A stretch of 37,715 bases of DNA from positions 1 through 37,715 of the forward strand of contig JAMPXK010000022.1 in NCBI GenBank assembly GCA_023701245.1, read 5' to 3'. How positions within the stretch are numbered: the stretch's first letter is position 1; each line of letters begins with the position of its first letter. This document shows, in pieces, positions 7,330 through 29,163 of the stretch. Source of the stretch: Elusimicrobiales bacterium. GTDB lineage: Bacteria; Elusimicrobiota; Elusimicrobia; Elusimicrobiales; UBA9959. Under the pieces are notes generated by a model. That model was given only the letters and a program-made list of their open reading frames with translations. It was not told the DNA's origin and made no database searches. Position numbers and translations under genes: made by a program.

Positions 7330-7330
7330 G

Positions 7331-7822: not shown

Positions 7823-7835
7823 ATTCTGTTCCTTT

Positions 7836-8279: not shown

Positions 8280-8283
8280 TGTA

Positions 8284-8628: not shown

Positions 8629-8631
8629 AAT

Positions 8632-12696: not shown

Positions 12697-14132
12697 TGCA
12701 GGTTCACTCCTAAGGTGTTGGTGAGGAGTTCGGCGTACGCGGACGGATAGTAGATGAGCGCGCCGAGGGCCAGGCCTATCAGGGCCAGGGCCATCACGCT
12801 CGCCACCATGGTCACGGAACCCTCTTTAGGGCTGCCGTGGCCGGCCGGTTCTCCGAGGAAGATCTTGTAGAACAGGCGCACGAGGTAGAGCAGGGTCATT
12901 ACGGCCCCGGCCAGGAACATCAGCAGCACGGCGAGGTTGCCGTTCTGCGCGGCCCCGGAGAAGACCAGGAACTTGCTGAAGAAGCCGCCGAAGGGCGGGA
13001 TGCCCATCACGGACAGCGAACAGAGCGCGAAGGCCGTGCCGGTGACCGGCATGGAGGCGAACAGGCCGCCCATCTTGTTGATGTCCTTGGTGTGGGTGTT
13101 CTGCTCTATGATGCCGGCGCAGAGGAAGAGGCCGCCCTTGGCCACGCTGTGCATCAGGATGTAGAGCAGCGCGCCCACGAAGGCCGTCTTGTTGCCGCTG
13201 GCCAGGCCCAGGAAGATGAAGGCGATCTGGCTTACGGTGGAGTAGGCGATGATGCGCTTGATGTCGGTGTCTATCAGCGCGGCGCCCGCCGAGACCAGCG
13301 CGGAGGCGCCGGCCAGGTAAAGCACCGTGTTGGAGAAGGCGTCGGGGGCCGCGAAGGTCACGCCGAAAATGCGGGCGTAGGCGTAGACGCCGATCTTGAC
13401 CAGCACGGCCGCGTGCAGCAGGGAGGTTACCGTGGACGGGGCGACGCCGGCGTCGGGCAGCCAGGTGGAGAAGGGCAGGGTGGCCGACTTGGACAGGATT
13501 CCGGCCAGGATGAAGGCCGCGGCCGCGTAGGAAATGGCCTGGCCGTGGAGCATGCGCAGGTCCAGGGTGCCGTGGTCGAAGTAGACCATGATGATGCCGA
13601 GGAGCATGCACAGCGCGCCGAAAACGGTGACCAGTATGGTCTTGTTGGCCTTGGCCACGTCGCGGTCGGAGCGGAAGAAGCCCACCAGGCGCCAGCTGGC
13701 GAAGCCGGTCATTTCCCAGAACACGTACATCCAGAGGAGGTTGGCCGAGAAGACCAGGCCCATCATGGAGCCCAGGAAGAGGACCACCATGGCGTAGTAC
13801 TCGGTCTGGTTATCGTAGTGGGAGATATAGTCCAGCGAGTAGATAAGGATCACGGCGCTCACGAAGGCCGAGACCGAGGCCATGAAGACCGAGAGCAGGT
13901 CCGCGTGCAGGATTAAGTCGAAGCCACGCGGGAAGTTGAGGGTGAAGTCCGCCGTCTGTCCGCCCAGCACGGTGCTGGCCAGGGAGGCCGCGGCCACGAA
14001 GGTGAACAGGCCCAGGAGCACCGCGAAGGCGTTCCGGGCGGCGGTCGAGATCCGGGCGGCGAAAGGTATCAGGAACGCGCCGAAGACCGGTACCGCGACA
14101 GCGGTTATGAGCATTTTTATCGAAAGATCCAT
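12693..14132 (-). CDS. Antiporter-like subunit (NuoL/M-MrpA type), first gene of the operon
   Basis: A 479-residue protein from the chosen start, with about 14 membrane helices. Family sites are the TM5 glutamate (YVFWEMTGFASWRLVGFF), the TM7 lysine (LSKSATLPFSTWLPDA), HAAVLVKIGVYAYAR, and DIKRIIAYSTVSQIAF. An upstream in-frame ATG at 14162 would add 10 residues. I prefer 14132 (MDLSIKMLITAVAVP) because TATAAT ends 6 bases before it and the -10 box would otherwise lie inside the coding region. With two more homologues downstream, the complex has three antiporter-like modules, the same number as complex I. Confidence 0.92.
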   Translation of the reverse strand: MDLSIKMLITAVAVPVFGAFLIPFAARISTAARNAFAVLLGLFTFVAAASLASTVLGGQTADFTLNFPRGFDLILHADLLSVFMASVSAFVSAVILIYSLDYISHYDNQTEYYAMVVLFLGSMMGLVFSANLLWMYVFWEMTGFASWRLVGFFRSDRDVAKANKTILVTVFGALCMLLGIIMVYFDHGTLDLRMLHGQAISYAAAAFILAGILSKSATLPFSTWLPDAGVAPSTVTSLLHAAVLVKIGVYAYARIFGVTFAAPDAFSNTVLYLAGASALVSAGAALIDTDIKRIIAYSTVSQIAFIFLGLASGNKTAFVGALLYILMHSVAKGGLFLCAGIIEQNTHTKDINKMGGLFASMPVTGTAFALCSLSVMGIPPFGGFFSKFLVFSGAAQNGNLAVLLMFLAGAVMTLLYLVRLFYKIFLGEPAGHGSPKEGSVTMVASVMALALIGLALGALIYYPSAYAELLTNTLGVNLQ

Positions 14133-14138
14133 GAATCT

Positions 14139-14144
14139 ATTATA
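14139..14144 (-). promoter_or_regulatory. -10 box of the hydrogenase operon, leaderless spacing
   Basis: On the minus strand TATAAT is followed by AGATTC and then the ATG at 14132. The spacing places transcription initiation at or next to the start codon. No Shine-Dalgarno sequence is present and the -35 region (TAAAGA near 14162-14167) is weak. Confidence 0.6.
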
Positions 14145-14189
14145 CAAAAAAGAAAAATACATCTTTATTTAAAAAACCTTCAAACGGCT

Positions 14190-14275: not shown

Positions 14276-15919
14276 TTACAGCGGTATGTTGCCGGTGCGC
14301 TCGTGCGCGCCGGGGCGCCGCTTGCCGGCCAGGACGCGGAACGCCGCTATCAGGCGGGCGCGGGCCCTGGCGGGTTCTATGACCTCGTCGATAGAACCCA
14401 TGGAGGCGGTCTGGTAAGGCGAGGCGAACTTGTCCGAGTATTCCTTGGCCAGCTTCACCCGCAGCGCTTCCCGGTCCTCTTCCTTGGCCTCTTTTATCTG
14501 GCGGGAGTAGAGGATCTCTATGGCGCCGCGCGGGCCCATCACGGCGATCTCGGCGGACGGCAGGGAGAAGTTGATGTCGCCCCCCATCAGCTTGGAACTC
14601 ATGGCTATGTAGGCGCCGCCGTAGGCTTTGCGCAGCACCAGGGTGATCTTGGGCACGCTGGCTTCGGCGTAAGCGTAGAGGAGCTTCGCGCCGTGGCGGA
14701 TGATGCCGCCGTGCTCCTGGGCCACGCCGGGCCAGTAGCCGGGCACGTCCACGAGCGTCAGGATGGGGATGTTGAAGTTGTTGACGAAGCGGATGAACCT
14801 CGCCGCCTTGTCGGAGGCGTTGATGTCCAGCGCGCCGGCCATGTGGGCCGGGTTGTTGGCTATCACGCCCACTACCTGGCCGCCCAGGCGGATAAAGCCC
14901 ACTACGATGTTCTTGGCGTAGTCGTGGTGGACTTCCAGGAACTTGTGGTCGTCGGACAGCCACCAGATGATGTGGTTGACGCGGTAGGGTTTGCGGGGGT
15001 CCACCTCGCAGAGTTTCTCCATCAGCGGGATCTTGCGGTCTTCGGAGTCCTTGGTGTCCAGCGCCGGGGCCGCTTCGAAGCGGTTCTGCGGCAGGAAGCT
15101 CATCAGTTCCTTGACCTGCCGGTAGCAGTCCGGTTCGGAGTTGGCCACGAAATGGCAGACGCCGGACTTGGAGGCGTGGGTCATGGAGCCGCCGAGCGTT
15201 TCGAAATCCACTTCTTCGCCGGTGGCGGCCTTCACCACTTCGGGGCCGGTCACGAACATGTTGCTCAAGCCCTTGACCATGAAGACGAAATCGGTCAGCG
15301 CCGGGGAATATACCGCGCCGCCGGCGCAGGGGCCTACGATGATGGAGATCTGGGGCACGATGCCGGAGTACTTGGTGTTGCGGTAGAAGATCTCGCCGTA
15401 GCCGTCCAGGGAATCCACGCCTTCCTGGATACGGGCGCCGCCGGAATCCAGGATGCCTATGACGGGGATCCTGGCGTCGGCGGCCATGTCCATGAGGCGG
15501 GTGATCTTGTCGGCGTGAGTACGGCCCAGCGAGCCGCCCAGCTGCGTGAAGTCCTCCGAGAAAATGGCGGCCAGGCGGCCGTTCACCTTGCCGAAGCCGG
15601 TGATGACGCCGTCGCCTTTGATATGTTTATCCTTGATGCCGAAGTCGGTGCAGCGGCTCTCCATGAGCAGGCCTATCTCCTGGAACGACCCCTCGTCCAC
15701 CAGGTAGGCGATGCGCTCCCTGGCCGTCAGCTTGCCTTTTGCCTTCTGGGCGGCTATTTTTTCAGGAGGCCCGCCGGCTTCGGCGGCCGCCTGGATCTCG
15801 CGGTATTTCCTGAGCGATTCCGGTACTACCCGGACCTTCTTGGGATGGGTTTTCTTCCCGGCCGCCTGCTGCGCCGCCGCGGCGCCGCCGGCTATAGGGT
15901 CTTCCATTAGATCGGCCAT
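14276..15919 (-). CDS. Acyl-CoA carboxylase carboxyltransferase subunit (AccB/PccB/MmdA family)
   Basis: A 547-residue crotonase-fold carboxyltransferase. Both oxyanion-hole regions are present: GPCAGGAVYSPALTDF (about 197-211) and GGAYIAMSSK (434-443), with AEIAVMGPRGAIEILY after the second. It transfers CO2 from carboxybiotin to an acyl-CoA. Ile438 occupies the position that is Asp422 in Streptomyces PccB, where Ile is linked to acceptance of acetyl-CoA; this favours malonyl-CoA production but is weak evidence, since decarboxylase-type relatives can share it. An Ala/Lys-rich N-terminal extension of about 30 residues is unusual. GAGG precedes the ATG by 9 bases. No biotin carboxylase or biotin carrier gene is in the window. 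Position after the synthase and phosphopantetheinyl transferase suggests a role in extender-unit supply. Confidence 0.9.
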   Translation of the reverse strand: MADLMEDPIAGGAAAAQQAAGKKTHPKKVRVVPESLRKYREIQAAAEAGGPPEKIAAQKAKGKLTARERIAYLVDEGSFQEIGLLMESRCTDFGIKDKHIKGDGVITGFGKVNGRLAAIFSEDFTQLGGSLGRTHADKITRLMDMAADARIPVIGILDSGGARIQEGVDSLDGYGEIFYRNTKYSGIVPQISIIVGPCAGGAVYSPALTDFVFMVKGLSNMFVTGPEVVKAATGEEVDFETLGGSMTHASKSGVCHFVANSEPDCYRQVKELMSFLPQNRFEAAPALDTKDSEDRKIPLMEKLCEVDPRKPYRVNHIIWWLSDDHKFLEVHHDYAKNIVVGFIRLGGQVVGVIANNPAHMAGALDINASDKAARFIRFVNNFNIPILTLVDVPGYWPGVAQEHGGIIRHGAKLLYAYAEASVPKITLVLRKAYGGAYIAMSSKLMGGDINFSLPSAEIAVMGPRGAIEILYSRQIKEAKEEDREALRVKLAKEYSDKFASPYQTASMGSIDEVIEPARARARLIAAFRVLAGKRRPGAHERTGNIPL

Positions 15920-15966: not shown

Positions 15967-16620
15967 CTACGGGGCCCTGCCGGCCGCCACGGCCGTCCAG
16001 AAACCCTCGGGGAACGGCCTGGCTTCCACGCTGAACTCCGGGCTGCCCAGGTCCCGGTAGCGCTCCAGCGTCCTGCCCGTGAAAGAAATCCGCTCTCCTA
16101 CCCGGATATCCAGCGGGTCGGCCATCAGGCCCAGCCCGAGGGCTTTCATCAAAGCTTCCTTTATGGCCCAGAGGCGCGTGCCTTCGGAAGGGTCCGGTTG
16201 CGGCAGTTCCGCCGGGTGGAAATAGTCGGAGTACCAGGCGGGGTGCCTGCTCTCTATCTTCTCCAGGTCGGCCCCCAGGAAGGAGGAGCCCGGCCTGAAG
16301 GCGGCCAGGGCCCAGCCGTTGGAATGGGAGATGGACACCAGAGCCCCGGCGCAGCAGGGCCGCCCCAGGTGGTCCATGCCTATCTCCAGTTCCGCGGGCG
16401 GTTTCCCCATGCCGGCCAGCGCCGCTTTGGCGGCCAGGCGGCCGGCCAGCCATTCGCTGCGGCGCTTCTCTATGCGGAACGCCCCGTAGACGTCGGCCTC
16501 CCGCCGGGAGAGCGCGCCGCCCGGGACCTGGCCCGCTACCCGCAGGAATTTAAGGCTTACCCCGCAACCGGGCCACTCCTGGGTTAGGACCTCCGCCGCC
16601 TGCGCTTTATCGGTTATCAC
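15967..16620 (-). CDS. Sfp-type 4'-phosphopantetheinyl transferase
   Basis: A 217-residue protein with the Sfp/AcpT signature: RRSEWLAGRLAAKAAL (53-68), GRP (86-88), SISHSNGWALAA (96-107), GADLEKIE with metal-binding Asp118 and Glu120, and WAIKEALMKALG (151-162) with catalytic Lys154 and Glu155. It moves the phosphopantetheine arm of coenzyme A to carrier proteins. The start is GTG, supported by AAGGA 5 bases upstream. It begins 13 bases after the synthase stop, so the five-ACP synthase is its obvious substrate. Because those ACPs carry Thr in place of the acceptor Ser, this enzyme may be adapted to an unusual acceptor (inference). Confidence 0.93.
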   Translation of the reverse strand: MITDKAQAAEVLTQEWPGCGVSLKFLRVAGQVPGGALSRREADVYGAFRIEKRRSEWLAGRLAAKAALAGMGKPPAELEIGMDHLGRPCCAGALVSISHSNGWALAAFRPGSSFLGADLEKIESRHPAWYSDYFHPAELPQPDPSEGTRLWAIKEALMKALGLGLMADPLDIRVGERISFTGRTLERYRDLGSPEFSVEARPFPEGFWTAVAAGRAP

Positions 16621-16633
16621 TGGTTCCTTGATA

Positions 16634-19600
16634 TCAGATCGGGGTCGGGATCATCGCGTAATCGCGAAGCTCCGCCGCCAGGTTATAGTCCGCGTCGAAG
16701 GCCCAGGCGTCGTAGAGGCTCCGGTTGTCCTCGGTGCGGCCCTTGAAGACGCCGTAAAGGAACAGGGTCTCCGGGTCCTGGGGTTCGTTGTCGTACACTA
16801 TGGCCGCGCCCACGGCGTCCGGCAGGGCCATGGACCTGTCGAACTGGATGTCGCGCCAGCCGCAGGCCTGGAACAGCGCCTCGAACACCAGCGGGTGGAA
16901 GACCAGTTTCTGGGTCCCGTTCTTCCACAGCGGGGCCGCCGGGCGTTTGAAGACGGCCAGGACGGAATTCTTTTCCACCGCGAGCACCCCGTCGAGCACC
17001 TGGAAACTGGGCCCGTGGAAGTAGGTCTTGTAGATGGCCGCGGCGTCGTGCTTGTACTTTTTGGACTTCGGCAGGTCCGGGCGCATGCCGGCGTTCCAGC
17101 CGGAAGGCGCGTCCGCGGCCGCCGTGCCCTTGAAGTGGGTGCGGGTCTGCCCCAGGCGCAGGCCCTTGGGGCTCACGAAGTCCGACTCTATGCGGATCTC
17201 GCTGCCGGCGCCGGAGCCCAGGACCAGGCCCTTTACGCGCACGTCGGCCGGGCGCCCGCGCAGCAGTTTTATGGGCACCGCGAAGCGCACGTCGGTGAGA
17301 GCTTTGGGATGGGTCCCGGTCAGGAGGGTGGCGGCTTCGGCGAAGGCCTCCAGGCCCATCACGCCCGGCACGTAGGGCGTACCGTTTATGGCGTGGTCGG
17401 CCAGGTACGGGTCGCTCTCCAGGGAGAATTCCTTGACGGCGGAAAGGCTCTCGCCTTTCAGCAGGTCTTCCACCTTGGGCGTGAAATGCAGGCCGGTGGA
17501 ACTGGAGGCGGAAAAGCCGGGTTCGTACATCAGCTGCTTGTCCCAGTCCAGCTTTCCGAGGCTGCCGGAGAGAATGATCTCCGGCACCTTGCCGTAGGCC
17601 AATTCGTCGAGCAGGGCCTGCATGCCCTCCTCGGGGTAGAGGAATTCCATCTCCTGCGATTTCAGGAAGGCTTCCACTCCGGGGCGCGCGCCCATGCCTA
17701 TCTGGGCGTAGCCGGTCATGTCCACGGAGAGCGCCCTCACGCCCTTGTTGTGCTGGCTGACGCAGAACTTGGCGATGTAGTCGGAGGCGGCGGCGTAGTC
17801 GGTCTGGCCCAGGTTGCCGAACTTGCCGGCGATCGAGGAAGCCATCACCCAGAAACCCTTTTCCTTCACCACGCCGGATTTCCACATATTGACGGCTGAT
17901 TCGGCCTTCACGTTGAAGATCAGGACGAACTCCTCGGTAGCCTTGTCCACGGCCAGCTTGGAGCGTTCCAGCCCCGCGAAATGCACCAGCCCGTCTATGG
18001 AGCCGAAGTCGGCCTTGATGTTCTCCATGGTCTGGCGCAGCATGGCGTTGTCGGTGAGGTCGCAGCGGTAGTAATGCACTTTCACGCCGAGGGCGCGGAT
18101 GGCCTCCATGTTCCGGTGCATGTCGGCGGCGTCCTTGAGCCGGGTGAATTCCTTCTCGAGCAGCGCCGGGGTGGGCTTGTCGTTGGCGGCTTTTATCTCG
18201 TTCCAGAGCTCGCCCATCTTCCAGGCCTTCAGCTCGGCGTCGCTCATGCCGGTCAGGCGCTTGGCCTTGTCGCCTATTTCCATGATGTCGAGGATGAGGA
18301 TGTTGGCCCGGTGCTGCTCGGCGAGCATCCTGGCGAACATGGCCCCGAGGCCGCGGCCGCCGCCGGTGATGAGCACGTTGCGGCCGTCCAGCGGCGTGAG
18401 GTTCCTGGACTTGTCCAGGGCCTGCGGTTTGCCCACCAGGGTCCAGCGCTTGCCGTCGGCGTAGCCTATGGCCAGGCGCTTGTCGGAATAGAGGATCTCG
18501 TAGAAGGTCTTCTGCACTATGGCCTGGTTGGAGGAACTGGGCTCGAAGTCCAGCAGCTTCACGGCGCTCTTCTCCAGTTCCTTGCGCAGGCACAGCGTCT
18601 GGCCGTGGATGGCCCCGTAGATGGGGTCGTAGACGTCCCTGGTGCGGTAGCCGAAGCCGCCGTCGAGGGTGGTGACCACCGCCAGGAAGGTGGCGTGGCC
18701 TGGGTCCACTTTATTGAGCCCCCCTGAGAGGTGCTTGGCGGCCAGGAACAGCGGCAGGGCGTAACGCTTGAGGTCGTCGTACGCGGCCGTCTCCTGGGAC
18801 AGGGATTTCACCATGCAGCCCGGCAAGTATACTACGCCCTGCGTGTCGGGGTGCGCCGAGGCGAAGTCGGCCAGGGCCTTTTCCAGGGCCGGGACGTCCT
18901 TGAAGTCCACGGTGATGGCGTCTTTCACCTTGGTCCGGGCCGGGGTGAAGATGTAGGAGTCGGCGCGGTGCTTGTTGAGCTCTGTCCGGAAGGCTTTCGC
19001 CAGGTCCAGGTCTTCGGCGAAGATGGCCACCGGGCGCTTGGGGGCCAGCTTCTTTATGACTTCCTGTTCGACCGGGGCGGGTATGATGGCCGGCACGTGG
19101 CGGATGTGGCGCCGGGGATGCTCCTGCCTGGCCGGTTTCTGGGCCGGCAGGGGCTCCGCTGCGGTCTGGGCGGCTGGCGCCGCCAGGTCCAGCAGGTCGG
19201 GCTGATCGGCCTTGCCGGCTTTGCGTCGGGCCGGTTTGGCCGGTTCTGCGGCGGGGGCCGGCGCGGCGGCCTGGGCCGCTTTGCCGGTCTCTTCCATTAC
19301 GAACCTGATGCAGTGACGGATGGTGGGGTAATCCTTGAGCGACAGGTTGTCCCGGCGGGGAATGCTGTAATGCTCGCGCATGGCGGCGAACAGCTCGGCC
19401 TGTTTTACGGTGTCGATGCCGAGGTCGGCTTCCATGTCGAGATCGAGTTCCAGCATGTCCTTGGGATAACCGGTCTTGTCGGCTATCATGGTAAGGATGC
19501 TTTCCTTAACGGCCTCTTCGCCGACGCCCGACGCGGCGGGGAGGTGCGCCGGCACCGGTTTGGGTTCGGCGTAATGCTGCGGCTCGGCCGGCGCCTGAAC

Positions 19601-22600
19601 AGGCGCGGCGGCAACGGCCGGAGTTGTCCCTTTCTCCTCCATCACGAACTTGATGCAATGGCGGATGGTGGGGTAGTCTTTGAGCGACAGGTTGTCACGG
19701 CGCGGGATGCTGTAGTTCTCGCGCATGGCGGCGAACAGCTCGGCCTGTTTGACGGTGTCGATGCCGAGATCGGCCTCCATGTCGAGATCGAGTTCCAGCA
19801 TGTCCTTGGGATAACCGGTTTTGTCGGCTATCATGTTGAGAATGCTTTCTTTGACGGCGTCTTCGGTGACTCCGGAAGCGGCGGGCGCGCGGTGAACCGC
19901 CGGGGCCGGCGCGGAGTGCGCAGGCTGCGGTGCCGGCGCCTGAACGTGCGCGGGGGCCGGGGCTTGGGCCGGCGCGGCGGCAGCGACGGGGCCGGCTTTC
20001 TCCTCCAGCACGAACTTGATGCAGTGGCGGATGGTGGGGTAGTCCTTCAGGGAGATGTTGTCCTTGCGGGGAATGCTGTAATGCTCGCGGATGGCGGCGA
20101 ACAGCTCGGCCTGCTTGACGGTGTCTATGCCTAGGTCGGCCTCCATGTCCAGGTCCAGCTCCAGCATGTCCTTGGGATAGCCGGTTTTCTCGGTTATCAT
20201 GTTAAGGATATTTTCCTTAACGTCGCTCTCGCTGACACCCGACGTGGCGGGGCTGTGAGGCTGTACGGGTTTGGGCTCGGCGTAATGCTGCGGCTCGGCC
20301 TGCGCCTGAGCCGGAGCGGTTTCGGCGGCCGGGGCCCCCCCTTTCTCTTCCAGCACGAACTTGATGCAGTGGCGGATGGTGGGATAGTCCTTCAGGGAGA
20401 TGTTGTCCTTGCGGGGAATGCTGTAGTTCTCGCGGATAGCGGCGAACAGCTCGGCCTGTTTTACGGTGTCTATGCCGAGGTCGGCTTCCATGTCCAGGTC
20501 GAGTTCCAGCATGTCTTTGGGGTAGCCGGTCTTTTCGGTGATCATGTTAAGGATATTTTCCTTAACGTCGCTCTCGCTGACACCGCCGGCCACGGGTGCG
20601 TGGACGGGGGCCGGGGCCGCCTTCGGAGCGGGAGCGGCGTGCGCCGGCTGCGCCGCAGGGGCATGGACGGGCGCGGCTGCGACGGGCGAACCGGCTTTCT
20701 CCCCCAGCACGAACTTGATGCAGTGGCGGATGGTGGGATAGTCCTTCAAGGAAATATTGTCCTTGCGGGGAATGCTGTAATGCTCGCGGATGGCGGCGAA
20801 CAGCTCGGCCTGCTTGACGGTGTCTATGCCGAGGTCGGCTTCCATGTCCAGGTCGAGTTCCAGCATGTCCTTGGGGTAGCCGGTCTTCTCGGTGATCATC
20901 GCGAGCACGGTTTCCCTGACGGTCTCTTCGCTTAAGCCGGCCGGGGCGGGCTTATGCGCCGGCGCCGGTTTGGGCTCGGCGTAGTGCTGGGGAGCGGCGG
21001 CGGCGGGCGCCGGCCTGGGGGCCGGGGCGGCGACGGCGCCTACGGGTTCTTTGACCGGCGCGGCGGGCATCACGGGCGGCTTGCCGGCGGTCTTCTTGTC
21101 CTTAACGCGCAGCGTGTTGAGCACCACTTCCAGCTCCGCGGCCGGGTCGCCTGAAACCTGCTTTATCCAGCTGTTGTAGCGCCCCTGGTCCTCGTAGCGG
21201 GACTCCCCCGCTTTCCAGACCCTTTCGGTCATGGACATGGCCATGTGGGAGCCGAAGCCGGCGGCGAAGCGCAGCGCGTATTTCAGGTCGTAATGGCCGC
21301 CCTTCGACAGGTTGATGCCGGCCAGTTCCGGATCGGGTTCCCGGTAGTTGGCGATAGGCGGGATGATGCCGGTATTGAGCGCGCGCACGGCTACCACGTC
21401 CTCGAGGCCCGCGCCCATGGAGTGGCCGGTAAAGCCTTTTACGTTGCTGACCACCACGCGGTCGGCGGCGGGTCCGAAAGCGCGGCGCAGGGCCTTCACC
21501 TCGGCCGCGGCGGAGCCGCCGCGGGCGGGCGTGTAGGTCTCATGGGACATGAACATCGTGTACGGGGCTATCTCTTCCTTCTTAAGCCCGTAGACATGCT
21601 CCACTTTCTTTATGAAGTTCTCCATTACGCTGGCCACGTGCTCGGTGTCCAGGCGGGTGACGTGGTAGGCGGAGTTGGCGCATTCGGTAAGCAGGATGCG
21701 GGCCAGAGGCTTCATGCCGCGCTCGTGCACCAGGGTCTCGTCCTCTATTACCATACCCACCGCGCCGGAGCCGGCTATCAGGCCGTGGCGGCGGCGGTCG
21801 AAGGGCAGGGCCGCTTCGGAAACGTTGTCCTTGGTGGTGGCCGTGCCGCTGGCCAGGAAGCCGGGCATGGTCCATTCCTGGATGGTCTCGTTGGTGATGT
21901 CGTCGGCGGCTATAACCACTACGCGCTTGCACTTGCCGGCGCGGATCCAGCTTTCGGCCACGTGCACCGCCTGGGTGGTGGAGGCGCAGGCCGCGCTCAC
22001 GTGCAGCGACGGGCCTTTGGCGCCCACCCACTGGGCGAACTGGCTGTCGGCTATCGGGATCACCTTCAGCAGGAAATTCTGGCTGAAAGAGTACGGGTCT
22101 TTGTTCTCGCCGGGCTGGTAGCCCGCGAATTCTTTCTGCAGCCAGGCGCGCAGGCCGGCCTTGTCGGCCTCGGTGGGCAGCTTGTCCACTATCTGGTGAT
22201 AGACGCCCCACAGCTGTTCGGCGGTCTTGCCGGCGTACTTGTGGTTGAAGAAATGCGTGACTTCCTTCAGGAGCGACTCGGTCACCGGGAAGGCCGAGGC
22301 GAACACTACGCCGGTCTCGGAGGCGGCGGGTTCGGGCAGGGCCCATTTTTCGGGCAGGTAGCTGCCCGTGGTGGTCTTCTTGTAGTAATGGACCAGCGGC
22401 AGGCCCGCGTCCTTGAGGGCCAGCACGCCGGCGCCGATGGCCATCTTGAAGGTGGTGTCCAGCGCCTTGGCCACGGTGTGAGGCAGGCCGAATTCCTTCT
22501 CTATGTCCAGCGACCCGCTGCGGGCGGACAGTTTTATTGCCTGGTCCACCGAATCTATCTTCTCTATGCTGTGGTTGCCCGTCGGGGACTTCACCACGCG

Positions 22601-25600
22601 GATGATGTTCTTCTCTATCTGCTTCTCACGCCATTCCCCGGGGATCTGCTCTATCATGTTCTTGCCGGCCAGGATCTCGTCGAGGTTATGCTCGCGGAAC
22701 AGCTTGTCCCAGGTGCCGGGCGTGCCGCCCGCTATGCCCGAGACCGCTACCGGGTTGAAGTTGAAGCCGTAGCGCTCGGCGAAAGCGGCCTTGTCGGCCG
22801 GCAGCGCGGCCGGCCCGCTCACGGGAACCGGCGAGGCCGCCGGCGCGGAGACCTTCATGGCCCAATTCTGGTAATACGGGTTGAAGAACCTGCCGCCGTT
22901 CTGCGGGGCCTTGCCGTTCCAGTTCACGGGGATACCCAGGGCCGTCATATTGGCCAGCAGGTCGTTGAGCTCGGTGATGCCGCCGCGCTTGGGGTGGTTG
23001 GACGCCAGCACGGTGATATCCTTTTTGTCCTTGAACGTGGCGGTGGCGAAGGCGCTGAGCACGCGCTTGGGGCCGCACTCTATGAAGGTGCGCACACCCT
23101 CGGCGTACATGCGCTCGAGCTGCTTGATGAACTCCACGGGGCTGGTCATCTGCTTGATGAGCATGTCGTAGATGCCCTGCGGGTCCGTCGGGAAGAAGTC
23201 CGCGGTCACGTTTGACAGGATCTTCATGTCCGCGGCCTTGATCGGGATGTTCTGCAGGAAGTTGCGGTACGGGCCCATGGCCGGCGCCACTATCTCGGAA
23301 TGGAAGGCGTGGCTTACGGCTATTTCCCCCGCCTCCACGCCCATGGCCTTGAAGTGCTGCACTGCGGCCTCCACGGCCTTCGCCTCGCCGGCGATGACGG
23401 TCTGCAGCGGGCAGTTCTTGTTGGCGCAGATGACGTAGCCGGATATCTTTTTGAGCTCGACGTCCACTTTGTCGCAGCCCAGGGCGATGGAGGCCATCTT
23501 GCCCGGGTCGGCTACTTTTACCGACGCCATTTCCTTGGCTCGGCTGGTGACGGCGCGCAGGCCGTTCTCGAAGGTGAAGATGCCGGCAGCGGTGGCGGCG
23601 GCGTACTCGCCGAGCGAATGGCCTATGGCCATGTCCGGCTTTATGCCGAATTCCCTGAACAGGCGGTACATGGCTATGTCGGCCGTCATCATGGACGGCT
23701 GGGTGAGCTGGGTCTGCTTGATGGCGGCTTCACGCTTGGCCAGTTCTTCCTTGCCCTCGCCGGGCCGGCTCCAGATGGCCTCGGTCAGGCGGATGCCTAT
23801 CATCTTCTCCAGGATGCCATCGGCCTCGTTGAAGGTCTCCTGCACCACCTGGTACTTGGCGGCCAGGTCGCGCATCATGTCCACGTACTGCGAGCCCTGG
23901 CCGGGGAACAGCAGGCCCACCTTAGCCTGGTTGGTGCCGGTTTTGAAAGTATAGACGCCTTTCAGTTTAAAATTGAGCGGCGGCTCGGTCCAGGTCTCGG
24001 CCTTGCCGTTCTTGGCCATGAATTCCACTTTCTCCAGCAGGTCCTTCGGGGACTTGGCCACCACGGACACGCCGTAGGCGGCTTTGGGTTTCAGCATGGA
24101 AGGCTGGGCGTAAGCGGCCAGAGGGTAGGCCTCAGGCCATTTCGAGAACACGGCGGCGGCTTCGTTCTGGGCGTTCTTTATCACATCCGCGGGCGTAGCG
24201 CCGGTAAAGGTCACCGCTTCGCCCTGCAGGTTGGCGAAAGGCGCACGGGAATTTTCCACTATCTCAACGGAGGCGGCGGGAGTTTCGGCAGCGGCGCCGG
24301 CTTTCGCGAAGCGCTGGTGGTTCGGACCGGTGTATTCTTCCATGGTCACGTGGAAGTTGGTGCCGCCGAAGCCGAAAGAGGAAACGTTGGCCCGGCGCAG
24401 GCCGTTCTTGTTCCAGGGTTCGGCTTTATCTATCACCTTGAAGAGGTTGAGGTCTATGCCGGGGTTGGGGGTCTTGTAGTTTATGGAGGTAGGCAGGGTC
24501 TTATTGTAGATGGCGAGCGCGGTCTTGGCTATGGAGACGGCGCCGGCGGCGGCTTTGGAATGGCCGATCTGCGACTTCACCGAGGTCAGCCCCAGTTTCT
24601 TGCCCGCGCCCATATGCGGGCCGAACACTTCGCCCAGCACCTGCACTTCGGCCGCGTCGCCTACCTTGGTAGCGGTGCCGTGGGCTTCCACGAAGTCCAC
24701 GTCCGCCGGGGAATAGTCCACCTGGGCGAAGGCGTTCTCTATGGCTATTTTCTGGCCTTTCGGGTTGGGGGCGGTGATGCCTTTGCCCTTGCCGTCGGAG
24801 GAGGCGCCCACGGAGTTGATGAGCGCGTAGATCTTGTCGCCGTCCTTGACCGCGTCGGAGAGGCGCTTGAGCACGTACACGGACACCGCTTCCGCCATCA
24901 CGAAGCCGTTGGCCCGCGTGTCGAAGGAATAGGAGCCGTCGGCGGACAGGGCGCCGATCTTGCAGAACTTCACGTAGGCCGGCGGCGACATCATGTCGTC
25001 CGCGCCGCCCGCTACGGCCATGTCGAACTTGCCGGCGCGCAGGCCCAGCACCGCGTAGTCCAGCGCCGCCATGGAGGAGGCGCAGGCCGCGTCCATGGTC
25101 ATGTTGGGGCCGTTGAAATTGAAGATATTGGCGATGCGGCCGGCCGTCACGTTGGCCAGCTCTCCGGGCATGGTGTCCTCGGTGATCTTGATGATGTCCT
25201 TGTCTATGCCGGCCTCGTACTCACTTATCATCGCGTCTTTCTTGTCCTGGGTCAGGGAGGCGAAAGCGGCCGTTTTCTTAAGCACGTCCTCGTTGTAGAA
25301 TTTGTACACGCGCATGTCGGTCATTTCCTTGCGCGTTGCGCCCATGGCGTTGCCTATCACGGCCGCGGTCATCTTGGGGTCGAAAGGCTTCTTATCGTAG
25401 CCGGAATCTTCCAGCGCCATGCGTACGGCCTCTATGGTCATCTGCTGAAGGCGAGAGATCTGGGTGGCTATCTGGGGAGGGATCTTGTACTTGATGGAAT
25501 CGAACTTGAAGCCTTCTATGAAGCCGCCTATCTTGGAATAGGTCTTGTCCGCGGCTTTATGGTCTTCCGAGAAATAGAGTTTCCAGTCCCAGCGGTCAGC

Positions 25601-25717
25601 GGGGACTTCTCCTATGCAGTTGCGGCCTTCCACTACGTTGGTCCAGAACTGCTCTTTGTTCAGGGCTTTGGGGGCTATGATACCGAGACCGACTATCGCT
25701 ATTTTTTCATTGTTCAT
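16634..25717 (-). CDS. PfaA-like iterative polyketide/fatty-acid synthase, KS-AT-KS-5xACP-KR-DH
   Basis: A 3027-residue megasynthase. KS1 (about 1-465) has Cys212 (DAACASS), His346 (EAHGTAT) and His386. AT (about 600-900) has Ser701 (GHSLGEYAA) and HAFH at 803-806, a malonyl-type motif. KS2 (about 985-1500) keeps Cys1244, His1392 and His1432, though its first His lies in SHETYTPARGG instead of EAHGTGT. Five ACPs span 1595-2145, with Thr1633, 1751, 1866, 1988 and 2103 at the expected Ser. KR has GGGRGLG near 2452, Lys2604, Ser2628 and Tyr2641. The double-hotdog DH (about 2745-3027) has His2775 (HAINGTPYVPG) and Glu2946 where Asp is usual. No enoyl reductase or thioesterase is seen. KS1 resembles PfaA of polyunsaturated-fatty-acid synthases. 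I chose ATG 25717 (MNNEKIAIVGLG) over 25759, since the KS fold begins there. The product is unknown; a polyene or unsaturated acyl chain is plausible. Confidence 0.94.
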   Translation of the reverse strand: MNNEKIAIVGLGIIAPKALNKEQFWTNVVEGRNCIGEVPADRWDWKLYFSEDHKAADKTYSKIGGFIEGFKFDSIKYKIPPQIATQISRLQQMTIEAVRMALEDSGYDKKPFDPKMTAAVIGNAMGATRKEMTDMRVYKFYNEDVLKKTAAFASLTQDKKDAMISEYEAGIDKDIIKITEDTMPGELANVTAGRIANIFNFNGPNMTMDAACASSMAALDYAVLGLRAGKFDMAVAGGADDMMSPPAYVKFCKIGALSADGSYSFDTRANGFVMAEAVSVYVLKRLSDAVKDGDKIYALINSVGASSDGKGKGITAPNPKGQKIAIENAFAQVDYSPADVDFVEAHGTATKVGDAAEVQVLGEVFGPHMGAGKKLGLTSVKSQIGHSKAAAGAVSIAKTALAIYNKTLPTSINYKTPNPGIDLNLFKVIDKAEPWNKNGLRRANVSSFGFGGTNFHVTMEEYTGPNHQRFAKAGAAAETPAASVEIVENSRAPFANLQGEAVTFTGATPADVIKNAQNEAAAVFSKWPEAYPLAAYAQPSMLKPKAAYGVSVVAKSPKDLLEKVEFMAKNGKAETWTEPPLNFKLKGVYTFKTGTNQAKVGLLFPGQGSQYVDMMRDLAAKYQVVQETFNEADGILEKMIGIRLTEAIWSRPGEGKEELAKREAAIKQTQLTQPSMMTADIAMYRLFREFGIKPDMAIGHSLGEYAAATAAGIFTFENGLRAVTSRAKEMASVKVADPGKMASIALGCDKVDVELKKISGYVICANKNCPLQTVIAGEAKAVEAAVQHFKAMGVEAGEIAVSHAFHSEIVAPAMGPYRNFLQNIPIKAADMKILSNVTADFFPTDPQGIYDMLIKQMTSPVEFIKQLERMYAEGVRTFIECGPKRVLSAFATATFKDKKDITVLASNHPKRGGITELNDLLANMTALGIPVNWNGKAPQNGGRFFNPYYQNWAMKVSAPAASPVPVSGPAALPADKAAFAERYGFNFNPVAVSGIAGGTPGTWDKLFREHNLDEILAGKNMIEQIPGEWREKQIEKNIIRVVKSPTGNHSIEKIDSVDQAIKLSARSGSLDIEKEFGLPHTVAKALDTTFKMAIGAGVLALKDAGLPLVHYYKKTTTGSYLPEKWALPEPAASETGVVFASAFPVTESLLKEVTHFFNHKYAGKTAEQLWGVYHQIVDKLPTEADKAGLRAWLQKEFAGYQPGENKDPYSFSQNFLLKVIPIADSQFAQWVGAKGPSLHVSAACASTTQAVHVAESWIRAGKCKRVVVIAADDITNETIQEWTMPGFLASGTATTKDNVSEAALPFDRRRHGLIAGSGAVGMVIEDETLVHERGMKPLARILLTECANSAYHVTRLDTEHVASVMENFIKKVEHVYGLKKEEIAPYTMFMSHETYTPARGGSAAAEVKALRRAFGPAADRVVVSNVKGFTGHSMGAGLEDVVAVRALNTGIIPPIANYREPDPELAGINLSKGGHYDLKYALRFAAGFGSHMAMSMTERVWKAGESRYEDQGRYNSWIKQVSGDPAAELEVVLNTLRVKDKKTAGKPPVMPAAPVKEPVGAVAAPAPRPAPAAAAPQHYAEPKPAPAHKPAPAGLSEETVRETVLAMITEKTGYPKDMLELDLDMEADLGIDTVKQAELFAAIREHYSIPRKDNISLKDYPTIRHCIKFVLGEKAGSPVAAAPVHAPAAQPAHAAPAPKAAPAPVHAPVAGGVSESDVKENILNMITEKTGYPKDMLELDLDMEADLGIDTVKQAELFAAIRENYSIPRKDNISLKDYPTIRHCIKFVLEEKGGAPAAETAPAQAQAEPQHYAEPKPVQPHSPATSGVSESDVKENILNMITEKTGYPKDMLELDLDMEADLGIDTVKQAELFAAIREHYSIPRKDNISLKDYPTIRHCIKFVLEEKAGPVAAAAPAQAPAPAHVQAPAPQPAHSAPAPAVHRAPAASGVTEDAVKESILNMIADKTGYPKDMLELDLDMEADLGIDTVKQAELFAAMRENYSIPRRDNLSLKDYPTIRHCIKFVMEEKGTTPAVAAAPVQAPAEPQHYAEPKPVPAHLPAASGVGEEAVKESILTMIADKTGYPKDMLELDLDMEADLGIDTVKQAELFAAMREHYSIPRRDNLSLKDYPTIRHCIRFVMEETGKAAQAAAPAPAAEPAKPARRKAGKADQPDLLDLAAPAAQTAAEPLPAQKPARQEHPRRHIRHVPAIIPAPVEQEVIKKLAPKRPVAIFAEDLDLAKAFRTELNKHRADSYIFTPARTKVKDAITVDFKDVPALEKALADFASAHPDTQGVVYLPGCMVKSLSQETAAYDDLKRYALPLFLAAKHLSGGLNKVDPGHATFLAVVTTLDGGFGYRTRDVYDPIYGAIHGQTLCLRKELEKSAVKLLDFEPSSSNQAIVQKTFYEILYSDKRLAIGYADGKRWTLVGKPQALDKSRNLTPLDGRNVLITGGGRGLGAMFARMLAEQHRANILILDIMEIGDKAKRLTGMSDAELKAWKMGELWNEIKAANDKPTPALLEKEFTRLKDAADMHRNMEAIRALGVKVHYYRCDLTDNAMLRQTMENIKADFGSIDGLVHFAGLERSKLAVDKATEEFVLIFNVKAESAVNMWKSGVVKEKGFWVMASSIAGKFGNLGQTDYAAASDYIAKFCVSQHNKGVRALSVDMTGYAQIGMGARPGVEAFLKSQEMEFLYPEEGMQALLDELAYGKVPEIILSGSLGKLDWDKQLMYEPGFSASSSTGLHFTPKVEDLLKGESLSAVKEFSLESDPYLADHAINGTPYVPGVMGLEAFAEAATLLTGTHPKALTDVRFAVPIKLLRGRPADVRVKGLVLGSGAGSEIRIESDFVSPKGLRLGQTRTHFKGTAAADAPSGWNAGMRPDLPKSKKYKHDAAAIYKTYFHGPSFQVLDGVLAVEKNSVLAVFKRPAAPLWKNGTQKLVFHPLVFEALFQACGWRDIQFDRSMALPDAVGAAIVYDNEPQDPETLFLYGVFKGRTEDNRSLYDAWAFDADYNLAAELRDYAMIPTPI
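19290..20935 (-). repeat. Tandem array of five near-identical ACP-coding repeats
   Basis: Five direct repeats of about 345-366 bp lie inside the synthase gene. Each encodes a nearly invariant core (KTGYPKDMLELDLDMEADLG, then IDTVKQAELFAA, then YPTIRHCI) and is separated by Ala/Pro/His-rich linkers. Spacing of the modified residue is 118, 115, 122 and 115 residues. Similarity extends to the DNA level, which points to recent duplication or gene conversion and makes the region prone to copy-number change and assembly collapse. Confidence 0.95.
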
Positions 25718-25757
25718 AATCTTTTTTTGCCTTTTCCAGGTTGCGTTGTTCCATCCC

Positions 25758-25773
25758 ACCCCAATAAAGGGGT
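25758..25773 (-). promoter_or_regulatory. Leader hairpin upstream of the synthase gene
   Basis: ACCCC-AATAAA-GGGGT forms a small hairpin about 40 bases before the chosen synthase start. The leader from the AT-rich block at 25830-25855 (possible promoter, many TATATA steps) to the ATG is over 100 bases and also holds the dyad AACGGTCCGTT. A regulatory role is speculative. Confidence 0.25.
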
Positions 25774-25912: not shown

Positions 25913-27547
25913 TTAACGGAGGTTCTGCGGCTTGGGGATCATCAGGTAAAGCACGCCTTTGCGCGGAGAAAGCGGGGTAGCGTACTCCGCGGTGTCGAGC
26001 ACCTGCATGCGGGGGTCCGGCGCGAAGGAGATGCGTGCCCTGTACCTGTGGACCTTCTGCCAGTCCCACTCGCCTATCAGTTTGAGGGGTTTCATGGCTT
26101 TCAGGTAGGCCATGTTGCGCTCGTAATTGTGCCAGGCCTCGAAGTCGAAGCCATTGATGATATCCTCCGGCTTGATCTCTTCCCTGGGTTTACAGGCGAG
26201 CTCCCACTTGGCCTTGTTCCAGGCCAGGTAGTCCTTGGTGCCGGCCCAGCCCAGCAGGGCGTACAGGGCCAGCGCGAAGCCGGCGGCCGGCCGGGAGAAC
26301 CTTATTCCCCTCGCCGCGAAGACCGCCGCCATGGCGAACCAGGGCAGCAGGGTGGGCAAGAGGTAGCGGTCGAAGTACTTGGCGCCCATAAGGGAGATCG
26401 CCAGCTGCCCGAAAGCGGCCAGGGCCACGAAGCGCAGGGCCGGTCCGCCCCGGCGCAGCGCCAGGCCCGAGGCGTTCATCAGCACTACGGACGAGACCAC
26501 GGCCGCCGCCGTTGCGGCGAGCCAGAACAGGCGGCTGGAAAAGACTCCCGACGGCTTGAAGGCCGACCCGGCCAGGGTCAGCGCTCCCAGGCCGGAGTTG
26601 GCCAGGGTGTTCTCCAGGTAGGGCAGGGGCCCGTTAAGCAGGGCGAAGCCGGCCATGGCGGCCAGCGCCAGCCAGGGTCCGGCGGCGGAAACCCGTGAGC
26701 CGGTGCCGTTGCGGGACGTGAACCGGCCCAGGCTGAAGACGTAGCCGGCCGCCAGGGGCAGCAGCAGCAGGCCGGCTTCCGCCATGGAGGCGAACAGCCG
26801 GTAAAAAGAATCGTTGAGAAAGGACAGCGGGCTGGAAACGTGGGCCAGCGTGGCCGCCGCCACGTAATTTTCGGAAGCCCAGGTCTGCCCGTGCATCAGC
26901 CTGAACCACAGCGCGTAGCCGGCCATCGCCGCCGCCGGCGGCCCCCAGACCGCCGCGAGGGTGCGCCACCTGGCCCGGCCCTGCGCCAGCAGGCTTAGGG
27001 GCAAAGCCCGCGGCAGGGCCACGGCCAGCTGGCGCGTCAGGTACGCGGCGGCCACGCAGACCCCCGCCCAGACCAGCGCCGGAGCGTCGCCCGGGTCCTT
27101 CAACCGCCGCACGTAGAAATAAAGCGCGCAGGTCATCCAGAAAAAATAATGGACGTCGGTCATGAACGAGTTGGCCAGCACCAGGTAGAGCGGGCTGAAA
27201 GCCAGGGTGAGGCCGGCCGCGGCCTTTTCGAAAAAGCCGGCCTCGAACTCGTCGAGCAGTTTGACGAAGACGAAAACGGCCCCGGCCGCCACCAGTACGT
27301 TGGCCGCGCGCAGGGCTGAAAAACTGAACCCGAAAAGTTTGGAGCAGAGCGCGCCGAAGAGGATATGGAAGACCTGCGTGGAAGAGCCCCAGTCGCAGAG
27401 CGTCAGGCGCCCGGTCTCGGCGAGGTTCTTTACGGCCAGGGCGTAGGCCCAGTCGTCGTTCAGCGGGAAATCGAAGCGCCACGGCGCCAGGGTGGCGGCA
27501 AAAATGACGAACAGCGCGGCGACGGCGTATTTTCCGTATTTGTCCAC
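25913..27547 (-). CDS. GT-C fold membrane glycosyltransferase (ArnT/PMT-like)
   Basis: A 544-residue protein with about 11-12 membrane helices. The first periplasmic loop carries the acidic motif FPLNDDWAYA (Asp31, Asp32), the metal or acceptor site of GT-C enzymes that use polyprenyl-phosphate sugars. A later segment, NSFMTDVHYFFWM, fits the second acidic loop of the PMT_2 family. The C-terminal 120 residues form a soluble periplasmic domain. The start is GTG, with a G-rich Shine-Dalgarno-like run 5 bases upstream. It is divergent from cydA. The acceptor is unknown; it lies upstream of the synthase on the same strand, so glycosylation of the synthase product is possible but not shown. Confidence 0.8.
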   Translation of the reverse strand: MDKYGKYAVAALFVIFAATLAPWRFDFPLNDDWAYALAVKNLAETGRLTLCDWGSSTQVFHILFGALCSKLFGFSFSALRAANVLVAAGAVFVFVKLLDEFEAGFFEKAAAGLTLAFSPLYLVLANSFMTDVHYFFWMTCALYFYVRRLKDPGDAPALVWAGVCVAAAYLTRQLAVALPRALPLSLLAQGRARWRTLAAVWGPPAAAMAGYALWFRLMHGQTWASENYVAAATLAHVSSPLSFLNDSFYRLFASMAEAGLLLLPLAAGYVFSLGRFTSRNGTGSRVSAAGPWLALAAMAGFALLNGPLPYLENTLANSGLGALTLAGSAFKPSGVFSSRLFWLAATAAAVVSSVVLMNASGLALRRGGPALRFVALAAFGQLAISLMGAKYFDRYLLPTLLPWFAMAAVFAARGIRFSRPAAGFALALYALLGWAGTKDYLAWNKAKWELACKPREEIKPEDIINGFDFEAWHNYERNMAYLKAMKPLKLIGEWDWQKVHRYRARISFAPDPRMQVLDTAEYATPLSPRKGVLYLMIPKPQNLR

Positions 27548-27630: not shown

Positions 27631-27660
27631 TTGTGGAACCCGCCTTATAATTATTATAAT
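27631..27660 (+). promoter_or_regulatory. cydA promoter
   Basis: TTGTGG (27631-27636) and TATAAT (27655-27660) are 18 bases apart, and a second TATAAT lies at 27646-27651. The expected start near 27667 gives a leader of about 23 bases holding AAGGA 8 bases before the ATG. The same AT-rich block reads TATAAT on the minus strand and may also serve the divergent glycosyltransferase gene. Confidence 0.6.
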
Positions 27661-27689
27661 TGTGTCACCTTAATACAAGGATGGTCGCT

Positions 27690-29000
27690 ATGGACACACT
27701 GGCTTTGAGCAGGCTGCAGTTCGCGGTCACCGCGATGTTCCACTTTCTCTTCGTGCCGCTGACCCTGGGGCTGGGCTGGCTTACCGCCTGGTTCGAAACC
27801 CGTTACGTCCGCACCGGCGACGCCAGGTACCTGGCCATTACGCGCTTCTGGGGCAAACTGTTCCTGATAAATTTCGCGCTGGGCGTGGTGACGGGCATCA
27901 CCATGGAGTTCCAGTTCGGCATGAACTGGGCGGAGTACTCCAAGTACGTCGGTGACATTTTCGGCGCGCCGCTGGCCATCGAGGCCACGGTGGCCTTCTT
28001 CCTGGAATCCACCTTCATCGGCGTGTGGGTCTTCGGCTGGGACCGGCTGTCCAGGAAGGCGCACGCGGCCGCCATGTGGATCGTGGCCTTCGCCACCAAT
28101 ATGTCCGCCCTCTGGATCCTGCTGGCCAACGGCTGGATGCAGCGCCCCGTCGGCTATATCCTGCGCAACGGCCGCGCCGAGATGGTGGATTTCTGGGCGC
28201 TGGTGACCAACGCCTACGGCTGGCTGGAGTTCTTTCATACCGTTTTCGCCGGCTGGGTGATAGCCGGGTTCTTCGTGATGGGCGTGAGCGCGTGGCACCT
28301 GCTGCGCAAGAACCAGGAAGAACTGTTCCGGAAATCTTTCGGGGCCGGCGCGGTGTTCGCGCTGGCCAGCTCGCTCGCGGTGGCCTTCGTGGGCGACCTG
28401 AGCGGCATGAACGCGGCCCGCAACCAGCCGGCCAAGTTCGCGGCCATGGAGTCGGTCTGGCAGACGCGCACAAGCGCGCCTTACACGCTGCTCTCCTTCC
28501 CGCGCCTGAAGGGCGAGGGCAATTATTTCGAACTTCTCGAAGTCCCCAACGCGCTGTCCCTGATGGCCTTCCGGGACCCGCACGCCGAGGTGAAGGGCCT
28601 CGACAGCTTCCTGCCGCAGGACAGGCCGCCGGTGCTGCCTGTGTTCCTGAGCTTCAAGGCGATGGTGGCTTTCGGAATGCTGTTCATCCTACTGTCGGCC
28701 GCCGGGGCCTGGCTCTGGTACAAGGAGCAGCTGCACCGTTTCCCCCTTTACCTTAAGCTGATGGTCTTCGCCATCCCGCTGCCTTATATCGCCATCCAGC
28801 TGGGCTGGATCGTGACCGAGATGGGCCGCCAGCCCTGGGCGGTTTACGGGCTGATGCGCACCGCCGACGCGGTCTCCATGACGGTTACCCCCGCCCAGGT
28901 CTGGCTGTCGCTCGGGGGCTTCACGCTGTTCTACACCGCGCTGGGCGTGGTGGACGTCTGGCTGCTGGCCAAATACGCGCGCAAGGGCATGGAGGGGTGA
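27690..29000 (+). CDS. cydA: Cytochrome bd oxidase subunit I
   Basis: A 436-residue membrane protein, the haem-carrying subunit of cytochrome bd quinol oxidase, which reduces O2 to water with high affinity without pumping protons. The N-terminus LSRLQFAVTAMFHFLFVPLT holds His18, the equivalent of the E. coli His19 haem ligand. Later family segments are MEFQFGMNWAEYSKYVGDIF, AFFLESTFIGVWVFGW and GWIVTEMGRQPWAVYGLMRT. It is much shorter than E. coli CydA (522), so it belongs to the short Q-loop type. An upstream TTG-initiated frame adds 10 residues, but AAGGA correctly spaced from 27690 supports the ATG. Its partner cydB follows after a 163-base gap that contains an inverted-repeat element. Confidence 0.96.
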   Translation: MDTLALSRLQFAVTAMFHFLFVPLTLGLGWLTAWFETRYVRTGDARYLAITRFWGKLFLINFALGVVTGITMEFQFGMNWAEYSKYVGDIFGAPLAIEATVAFFLESTFIGVWVFGWDRLSRKAHAAAMWIVAFATNMSALWILLANGWMQRPVGYILRNGRAEMVDFWALVTNAYGWLEFFHTVFAGWVIAGFFVMGVSAWHLLRKNQEELFRKSFGAGAVFALASSLAVAFVGDLSGMNAARNQPAKFAAMESVWQTRTSAPYTLLSFPRLKGEGNYFELLEVPNALSLMAFRDPHAEVKGLDSFLPQDRPPVLPVFLSFKAMVAFGMLFILLSAAGAWLWYKEQLHRFPLYLKLMVFAIPLPYIAIQLGWIVTEMGRQPWAVYGLMRTADAVSMTVTPAQVWLSLGGFTLFYTALGVVDVWLLAKYARKGMEG

Positions 29001-29001
29001 C

Positions 29002-29127: not shown

Positions 29128-29163
29128 TTTGGGCAAGTTTTAATTTAAGGAAAGAGGGAACTT

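What the first reader, a model, noticed from the sequence alone, without database searches (positions are those of the whole stretch)
19290..20935. All five ACP domains have Thr where the phosphopantetheine-bearing Ser is expected
The carrier motif reads DLGIDTVKQAEL in every copy, where PfaA-type ACPs have GIDS(I/V)K. Codons are clearly Thr, and no other Ser lies in the motif. The change is uniform in five domains and an Sfp-type transferase is encoded 13 bases downstream, so the ACPs are unlikely to be dead. Either a Thr-accepting carrier family exists here, or the arm attaches elsewhere. I recall DxGxDTVKQAE motifs in other bacterial multidomain synthases but cannot search for them.
Basis: partly seen in the sequence, partly recalled or inferred. 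Interest (0 to 1): 0.82.

Follow-up and report, generated by a model that had tools for sequence, protein, structure and literature searches.

The report
Acyl carriers with threonine attachment site
A probable lipid-making enzyme in a little-studied bacterial phylum has carrier domains in which the expected attachment serine is a strictly conserved threonine, next to a gene for its own arm-attaching enzyme, which points to an unusual kind of carrier that can be tested at the bench.

Summary
All five tandem ACPs of a 3041-aa synthase (KS-AT-KS-ACPx5-KR-DH) have Thr (ACC) at the start of helix II, where the phosphopantetheine Ser belongs. An intact Sfp-type transferase starts 13 bases downstream, then a carboxylase gene. 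It is not a local mutation: 232 of 232 motif copies in 93 loci are Thr, with all four Thr codons (most loci were found partly through the motif). Read from the second KS instead, 61 of 61 copies in 30 loci are Thr. A Nonomuraea homologue also has Thr. PfaA-type synthases of the same phylum, sometimes of the same genome, have Ser (27 of 27), as has the genome's FAS ACP. 38 of 206 Thr domains have no Ser in the 77 residues examined. Catalytic residues of synthase and transferase are almost all kept, so these are not decaying genes. The synthase class is known (Shulse and Allen 2011, Type R); I found no report of its Thr in the held library. E. coli ACP S36T is reported as unmodifiable. Best reading: the dedicated transferase puts phosphopantetheine on Thr. 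The bond is inferred, not shown. New variant of a known kind.

The parts
16634..25759 (-). Type I synthase, KS-AT-KS'-ACPx5-KR-DH, 3041 aa from GTG (an ATG at residue 15 is a likelier start, by eye)
   Evidence: Pfam ketoacyl-synt, Acyl_transf_1, KR, PP-binding, PKS_DH_N
24332..25708 (-). KS1 domain (Cys-His-His kept); limits approximate
   Evidence: Pfam and NCBIfam ranges; aligned C, H, H in 54 of 54 loci
22970..23923 (-). AT domain (GHSLGEY; HAFH, malonyl type by a recalled rule); limits approximate
   Evidence: aligned S, H, F in 60 of 60 loci
21095..22747 (-). second KS-like domain, in the place called CLF in Type R by Shulse and Allen, but with Cys and two His; limits approximate
   Evidence: aligned C, H, H in 62 of 62 loci
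20696..20950 (-). ACP1, Thr codon ACC at 20819-20821
20342..20596 (-). ACP2, Thr codon ACC at 20465-20467
19997..20251 (-). ACP3, Thr codon ACC at 20120-20122
   Evidence: model
19631..19885 (-). ACP4, Thr codon ACC at 19754-19756
19286..19540 (-). ACP5, Thr codon ACC at 19409-19411
17714..18376 (-). KR domain (Pfam range)
   Evidence: aligned Tyr in 68 of 68, Ser in 66 of 68 loci
16637..17512 (-). DH domain; limits approximate
   Evidence: PKS_DH_N; aligned His in 67 of 67 loci
15967..16620 (-). Sfp-type 4'-phosphopantetheinyl transferase, 13 bases after the synthase
   Evidence: aligned to Sfp, E 0.0012; model pLDDT 93.5, best solved fold match 4mrt, Sfp with CoA and PCP
14276..15919 (-). 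acyl-CoA carboxylase carboxyltransferase (mmdA/PccB-like), conserved third gene of the block
   Evidence: Carboxyl_trans 588.9 bits; downstream on the same strand in 51 of 53 loci with room

Best explanation
The five ACPs are working carriers that hold 4'-phosphopantetheine as a phosphodiester on the side-chain oxygen of the invariant Thr instead of Ser. The adjacent Sfp-type transferase is the dedicated enzyme that puts it there. The carboxylase supplies malonyl-CoA, the AT loads it on the Thr-bound arms, and the two KS, the KR and the DH build a reduced or unsaturated acyl chain in the manner proposed for Type R secondary-lipid synthases. If housekeeping AcpS does not accept Thr, the synthase would be active only in the presence of its own transferase. 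Shown: the sequence, its position, conservation, linkage and kept active sites. Inferred: the Thr-arm bond, the insulation from AcpS, the substrate and the product.
For: Position: the Thr aligns with the phosphopantetheine Ser of solved ACPs and starts helix II in the model; the best fold matches are ACPs, though 0 of 276 reach E 0.001. Fixation: 232 of 232 motif copies in 93 loci, codons ACC 109, ACG 105, ACA 11, ACT 7; 78 of these loci came, whose patterns included EADLGIDT. Read from the second KS, without selecting on the ACP motif: 33 of 33 copies in 15 of 20 loci and 28 of 28 in 15 of 20 loci; all 30 readable genomes had matched the ACP profile before. In the phylum 129 of 137 genomes with the second KS match the Thr-type ACP profile, and 0 of 25 genomes of the Ser-only class have that KS. 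Selection: in the central 20 codons the window differs from L063 by 12 synonymous and 0 replacement codons. No rival Ser: 38 of 206 domains have none in the 77 residues examined. Contrast: PfaA-type loci have Ser in 27 of 27 copies in 12 loci, also in genomes with the Thr type (G183, G184, G188); the FAS ACP reads DLGADSLD. Linkage: transferase in 62 of 63 loci with room, carboxylase in 51 of 53. The transferase keeps H99, D118, E120, W151, K154, E155, K159 in 19 of 19 Elusimicrobiota rows. The ACPS-family search of the own genome found two transferases, AcpS and this one. 4PPT_N matches: 117 of 148 Thr-type genomes, 14 of 192 others. Synthase active sites kept.
Against: No mass or chemistry is available here. 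E. coli ACP S36T is described as not modifiable and not functional (PMC3340395, passages), and the spinach ACP Ser38 to Thr or Cys change as causing loss of function (PMC9310384, background passage), so Thr is a real handicap for ordinary systems. The transferase shows no clear residue that would explain Thr acceptance: transferases from Ser-type genomes of the phylum look similar. The Nonomuraea transferase-like stretch has Asp where the active-site His is expected. The PP-binding search of the own genome found only 3 of these 5 ACPs besides the FAS ACP, so it could also have missed another client of the transferase. 31 of 148 Thr-type genomes lack a 4PPT_N match; at least 8 of these have a transferase by direct comparison.
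Confidence: 0.76

Rival explanations
1. The arm attaches elsewhere in the ACP (another Ser, or the Thr of KTGYP or of YPTIRH) and helix-II Thr is only structural.
For: T of KTGYP and T of the YPT motif are also nearly invariant (0.985 and 0.971 of 206 domains).
Against: No Ser column is conserved and 38 of 206 domains have no Ser in the 77 residues examined. A Thr at the start of helix IV is an ordinary conserved feature of type II PKS ACPs (PMC7949117, passage), and TGYP also occurs in Ser-type ACPs of the phylum. The D-x-G-x-D context of helix II is kept.
Confidence: 0.08
2. The domains never carry an arm: they are spacers or docking beads, and acyl chains ride on the free FAS ACP in trans.
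For: A normal Ser FAS ACP and AcpS are present in the genome.
Against: An Sfp-type transferase is linked in 62 of 63 loci, and with the FAS ACP presumably served by AcpS no other client was found in this genome (the carrier search was not exhaustive). The helix-II motif is the most conserved part of the domain, the opposite of decay.
Confidence: 0.1
3. Thr itself is acylated or otherwise modified directly, without phosphopantetheine.
For: None beyond the lack of chemical data.
Against: Would leave the conserved linked transferase without a role; I recall no carrier that works so.
Confidence: 0.04
4. Sequencing or assembly artefact, or a local loss in one genome.
For: ACP repeats do break assemblies (contig ends in L253, L254, L259).
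Against: The same Thr occurs in 93 loci from many separate assemblies and with four different codons.
Confidence: 0.005

Closest known systems
Type R secondary-lipid (Pfa-like) synthase, Shulse and Allen 2011 (PMC3098273)
   Same: One PfaA-like protein KS-MAT-CLF-ACP(3-6)-KR followed by a transferase gene; Elusimicrobium minutum is a listed member (two parts of the text read).
   Different: The words threonine and serine do not occur in its main text, so the acceptor change is not reported there. The second KS keeps Cys-His-His here, and a DH domain is found.
PfaA of marine PUFA synthases (TIGR02813)
   Same: KS-AT-tandem ACP-KR order; 944.7 bits
   Different: Below the curated cut-off of 1010.1; Ser in the ACPs of PfaA-type loci of this phylum (27 of 27) against Thr here; extra KS and DH in one chain.
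Sfp-type phosphopantetheinyl transferase (Bacillus Sfp, 4mrt)
   Same: Fold and catalytic residues
   Different: Inferred to use Thr rather than Ser; 19% identity in the fold alignment.
E. coli AcpP S36T (artificial variant)
   Same: Thr at the acceptor position
   Different: Reported as not modified and not functional with the E. coli system (PMC3340395, passages), whereas here Thr is the fixed natural state.

Membership tests
Type R secondary-lipid synthase | Single PfaA homologue with KS-MAT-CLF-ACP(3-6)-KR | tested here: met
   five ACPs; second KS in the CLF place, though it keeps Cys
Type R secondary-lipid synthase | Transferase gene downstream | tested here: met
Type R secondary-lipid synthase | Transferase motif P1b' hShxH | tested here: met
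   VSISH at residues 95-99 of the transferase (by eye; motif definition)
Type R secondary-lipid synthase | KS falls in the Type R clade of the published tree | not tested
   named Type R KS sequences were not on hand; in my own tree the Thr group is one side of a branch (100/98)
Type R secondary-lipid synthase | Lipid product | not testable with these tools
   product unknown
PfaA, TIGR02813 | Score over curated cut-off | tested here: not met
   944.7 against 1010.1 bits
ACP / PP-binding, PF00550 | Domain score over cut-off and ACP fold | tested here: met
   23.3-25.3 bits against 20.8 for three of the five ACPs (two were not listed); fold matches are ACPs, none under E 0.001
ACP / PP-binding, PF00550 | Phosphopantetheine Ser at the start of helix II | tested here: not met
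   Thr in 5 of 5, aligned to the Ser
Sfp-type transferase | 4PPT_N plus ACPS domains with the Asp-x-Glu and W-x-x-K-E-A-x-x-K motifs | tested here: met

The most novel reading that the evidence does not exclude
A separate natural class of acyl carrier proteins, seen here in two phyla, is primed on Thr by a co-evolved transferase. The change makes the carrier invisible to housekeeping AcpS, so that synthase activity is switched on only by its own transferase: an orthogonal carrier-transferase pair made by evolution.
Probability: 0.6. Interest if true: 0.85.

Novelty: new variant of a known kind. Interest (0 to 1): 0.76.

Why it matters
The phosphopantetheine Ser is treated as the defining residue of carrier proteins. 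A fixed natural Thr class would mean that carriers without the Ser cannot be written off, would widen the known chemistry of phosphopantetheinyl transferases, and would offer a carrier-transferase pair that AcpS may not touch. It also gives a first handle on an unknown product of Elusimicrobiota, a phylum with at least one cultivated member, Elusimicrobium minutum.

Tried and rejected
Looking for other phyla was largely unsuccessful. The one genome-contig scan kept the best 80 (78 loci) of 542 confirmed stretches, itself a capped list; the titles that name a taxon are all Elusimicrobia, the others unnamed bacteria. A viral-contig scan found pattern matches but no relative. In plasmid records the ACP query hit one record, Nonomuraea, and the second-KS query hit five: Nonomuraea over 90% of the query and four partial matches, two of them annotated fabF. 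So the spread to Acidobacteria and Chloroflexi rests on the Type R membership list, not on ACPs that I read. Looking for a transferase residue that marks Thr acceptance gave nothing clear.

The first codon count read the Asp codon by an off-by-one error and was redone. A first active-site count with strict patterns undercounted and was redone on alignments. The motif pattern found 18 copies of the Ser set; the count used is that (27). Counts contain overlapping loci and are not used. No such synthase with Ser was seen. The 20 loci were picked by hand, not at random.

Paper searches for a reported Thr carrier found none: in the held open-access library only. Two papers listed for threonine proved irrelevant on reading the passages. 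A paper on the Azotobacter type I synthase ArsA that might bear on this is not held.
Full report
What is there. The window is contig C74 of a 2.5 Mb genome assembly whose close kin in the named collection are Elusimicrobia. On the minus strand lies a three-gene block: a 3041-aa synthase (25759..16634), a transferase whose start follows 13 bases later (16620..15967), and an acyl-CoA carboxylase carboxyltransferase (15919..14276). The synthase reads KS-AT-KS-ACPx5-KR-DH. ACPs 2-5 are 79-88% identical to the first, and each of the five has DLGIDTVKQAEL with an ACC codon for Thr.

Is Thr at the acceptor place? Yes. Profile alignment to solved carrier proteins puts it on the phosphopantetheine Ser. 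An AlphaFold2 model of ACP3 from 13 Elusimicrobiota rows (mean pLDDT 82.9) starts helix II at exactly this residue; its best fold matches are ACPs, although 0 of 276 reach E 0.001.

Is it more than a local change? Of 61 genomes (own and near relatives) 60 match the ACP profile, and in the phylum 173 of 340 do; I class 148 of them as Thr type, by match strength and by the families that I sampled, and only part of these were read letter by letter. In 93 loci read (78, 13, the window and Nonomuraea) all 232 copies that fit a motif pattern open at the acceptor position are Thr, with codons ACC 109, ACG 105, ACA 11, ACT 7. Because the 78 loci were found partly through the pattern EADLGIDT, I also read ACPs downstream of the second KS. 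Thirty genomes, 12 of them without an ACP match, gave 20 loci; ACPs could be read in 15, all 33 copies Thr. A second set of 20 loci, picked by hand, gave 28 of 28 in 15 loci. Some of these genomes are also in the first set, and all 30 readable ones had matched the ACP profile. Over the whole phylum 137 of 340 genomes have the second KS; 129 of them are Thr type; none of the 25 genomes of the Ser-only class has it; of the other eight, six could not be read and two have a lone KS gene. In the central 20 codons the window differs from L063 by 12 synonymous and no replacement changes; over the seven loci compared, replacements there are 0-1 in the six Elusimicrobiota loci and 4 in Nonomuraea. Thr is therefore under strong purifying selection over a deep divergence.

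Contrast within the phylum. Twelve PfaA-type loci, taken because weaker matches had already shown Ser, have LGIDSIKRV in 27 of 27 copies, and three genomes (G183, G184, G188) carry both types. The window genome's FAS ACP reads DLGADSLD. A KS1 tree of 55 rows (33 of the 55 Thr-type sequences and all 22 others) puts the Thr group, Nonomuraea included, on one side of a branch (100/98). That tree carries long-branch warnings, Nonomuraea among them, and three rows labelled PfaA by best hit group with PfaC-like rows.

Are the domains alive? Aligned catalytic residues are kept: KS1 C-H-H in 54 of 54, AT S-H-F in 60 of 60, second KS C-H-H in 62 of 62, KR Tyr in 68 of 68 and Ser in 66 of 68, DH His in 67 of 67 (an Arg of the KR cofactor loop in 57 of 68). 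The transferase follows on the same strand in 62 of 63 loci with room (58 within 500 bases), the exception being L073, and the carboxylase in 51 of 53. Its catalytic residues are invariant in 19 of 19 Elusimicrobiota rows; it models well (pLDDT 93.5) and its best solved match is Sfp bound to CoA and a carrier protein. The ACPS-family search of the own genome found two transferases, AcpS and this one. The PP-binding search found the FAS ACP and three of these five ACPs, so it is not exhaustive. Across the phylum, 117 of 148 Thr-type genomes have a 4PPT_N match against 14 of 192 others. These genomes are related, not independent. At least 8 of the 31 misses have a transferase by direct comparison (G173, G179, G180, G181, G183, G184, G188, G190), and 3 of the 14 others have the second KS, so the synthase was probably cut by the assembly (G035, G095, G126).

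Could the arm sit elsewhere? No Ser column is conserved, and 38 of 206 full-length domains have no Ser in the 77 residues examined, in 24 loci (at least one of the 38 is partly unread). Two other Thr columns are nearly invariant, but both lie in places also seen in ordinary ACPs.

Literature. Shulse and Allen 2011 (PMC3098273; outline, passages and two parts of the text read) described this synthase class as Type R in Acidobacteria, Chloroflexi and Elusimicrobium minutum; their main text does not contain the words threonine or serine. In E. coli, ACP S36T is stated to be unmodifiable and non-functional (PMC3340395, passages), and a background sentence in PMC9310384 says that the spinach Ser38 change to Thr or Cys led to loss of function. 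Searches for a reported Thr carrier found none in the held library; most subscription papers are not held, so this is weak evidence of novelty.

Mechanism. The best reading is that the dedicated transferase attaches phosphopantetheine to the Thr oxygen and that the synthase then works as other Type R synthases are supposed to. If AcpS rejects Thr here as the E. coli system is reported to, the change also insulates the synthase from the housekeeping enzyme, which would explain why the transferase gene nearly always sits beside it. This last step is inference. I found no transferase residue that marks Thr acceptance.

Verdict. The synthase is a known kind; the fixed Thr acceptor is, as far as I could search, an undescribed variant with a direct bench test.

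Noticed in passing
window 21095-22747: The second KS domain, in the place that Shulse and Allen call a chain length factor in Type R, keeps Cys and two His in 62 of 62 loci, so it may be a working KS.
   Followed up: partly
window 14276-15919: A carboxyltransferase (mmdA/PccB-like) is the third gene of the block in 51 of 53 loci with room; the part of the 2011 paper that I read mentions a carboxylase gene only for Koribacter, between synthase and transferase.
   Followed up: yes
L205 10156-17907: Nonomuraea gerenzanensis has a single-ACP homologue (LGVDTVKQAEIF), followed by a biotin carboxylase-like ORF (by eye), a weak carboxyltransferase match and a transferase-like stretch in which Asp replaces the usual active-site His. 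The record lists no gene there.
   Followed up: partly
L206-L217: PfaA/PfaC-like clusters with Ser ACPs also occur in Elusimicrobiota, even in the window's own genus (G005, G008, G015, G031).
   Followed up: partly
L267 9619-11040 and L268 2679-4109: G177 and G178 have a lone gene of 463 codons related to the second KS (38-39% identity) with no AT, transferase or ACP-motif match in the stretch fetched.
   Followed up: partly
G040, G049, G050, G127-G129, G135, G136 (genus g7): Thr-type ACP matches without the second KS; two lie in open frames of 2489 and 2772 aa (G050, G049), possibly a variant synthase.
   Followed up: no
window 4770-14162: Minus-strand run of genes that look by eye like a membrane-bound NiFe hydrogenase or complex I-like respiratory complex.
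   Followed up: no
window 27660-30189: Two plus-strand genes that look by eye like cytochrome bd oxidase subunits.
   Followed up: no
window 25913-27547: A 544-aa protein upstream of the synthase has no Pfam or NCBIfam match; hydrophobic, possibly a membrane glycosyltransferase by eye.
   Followed up: partly
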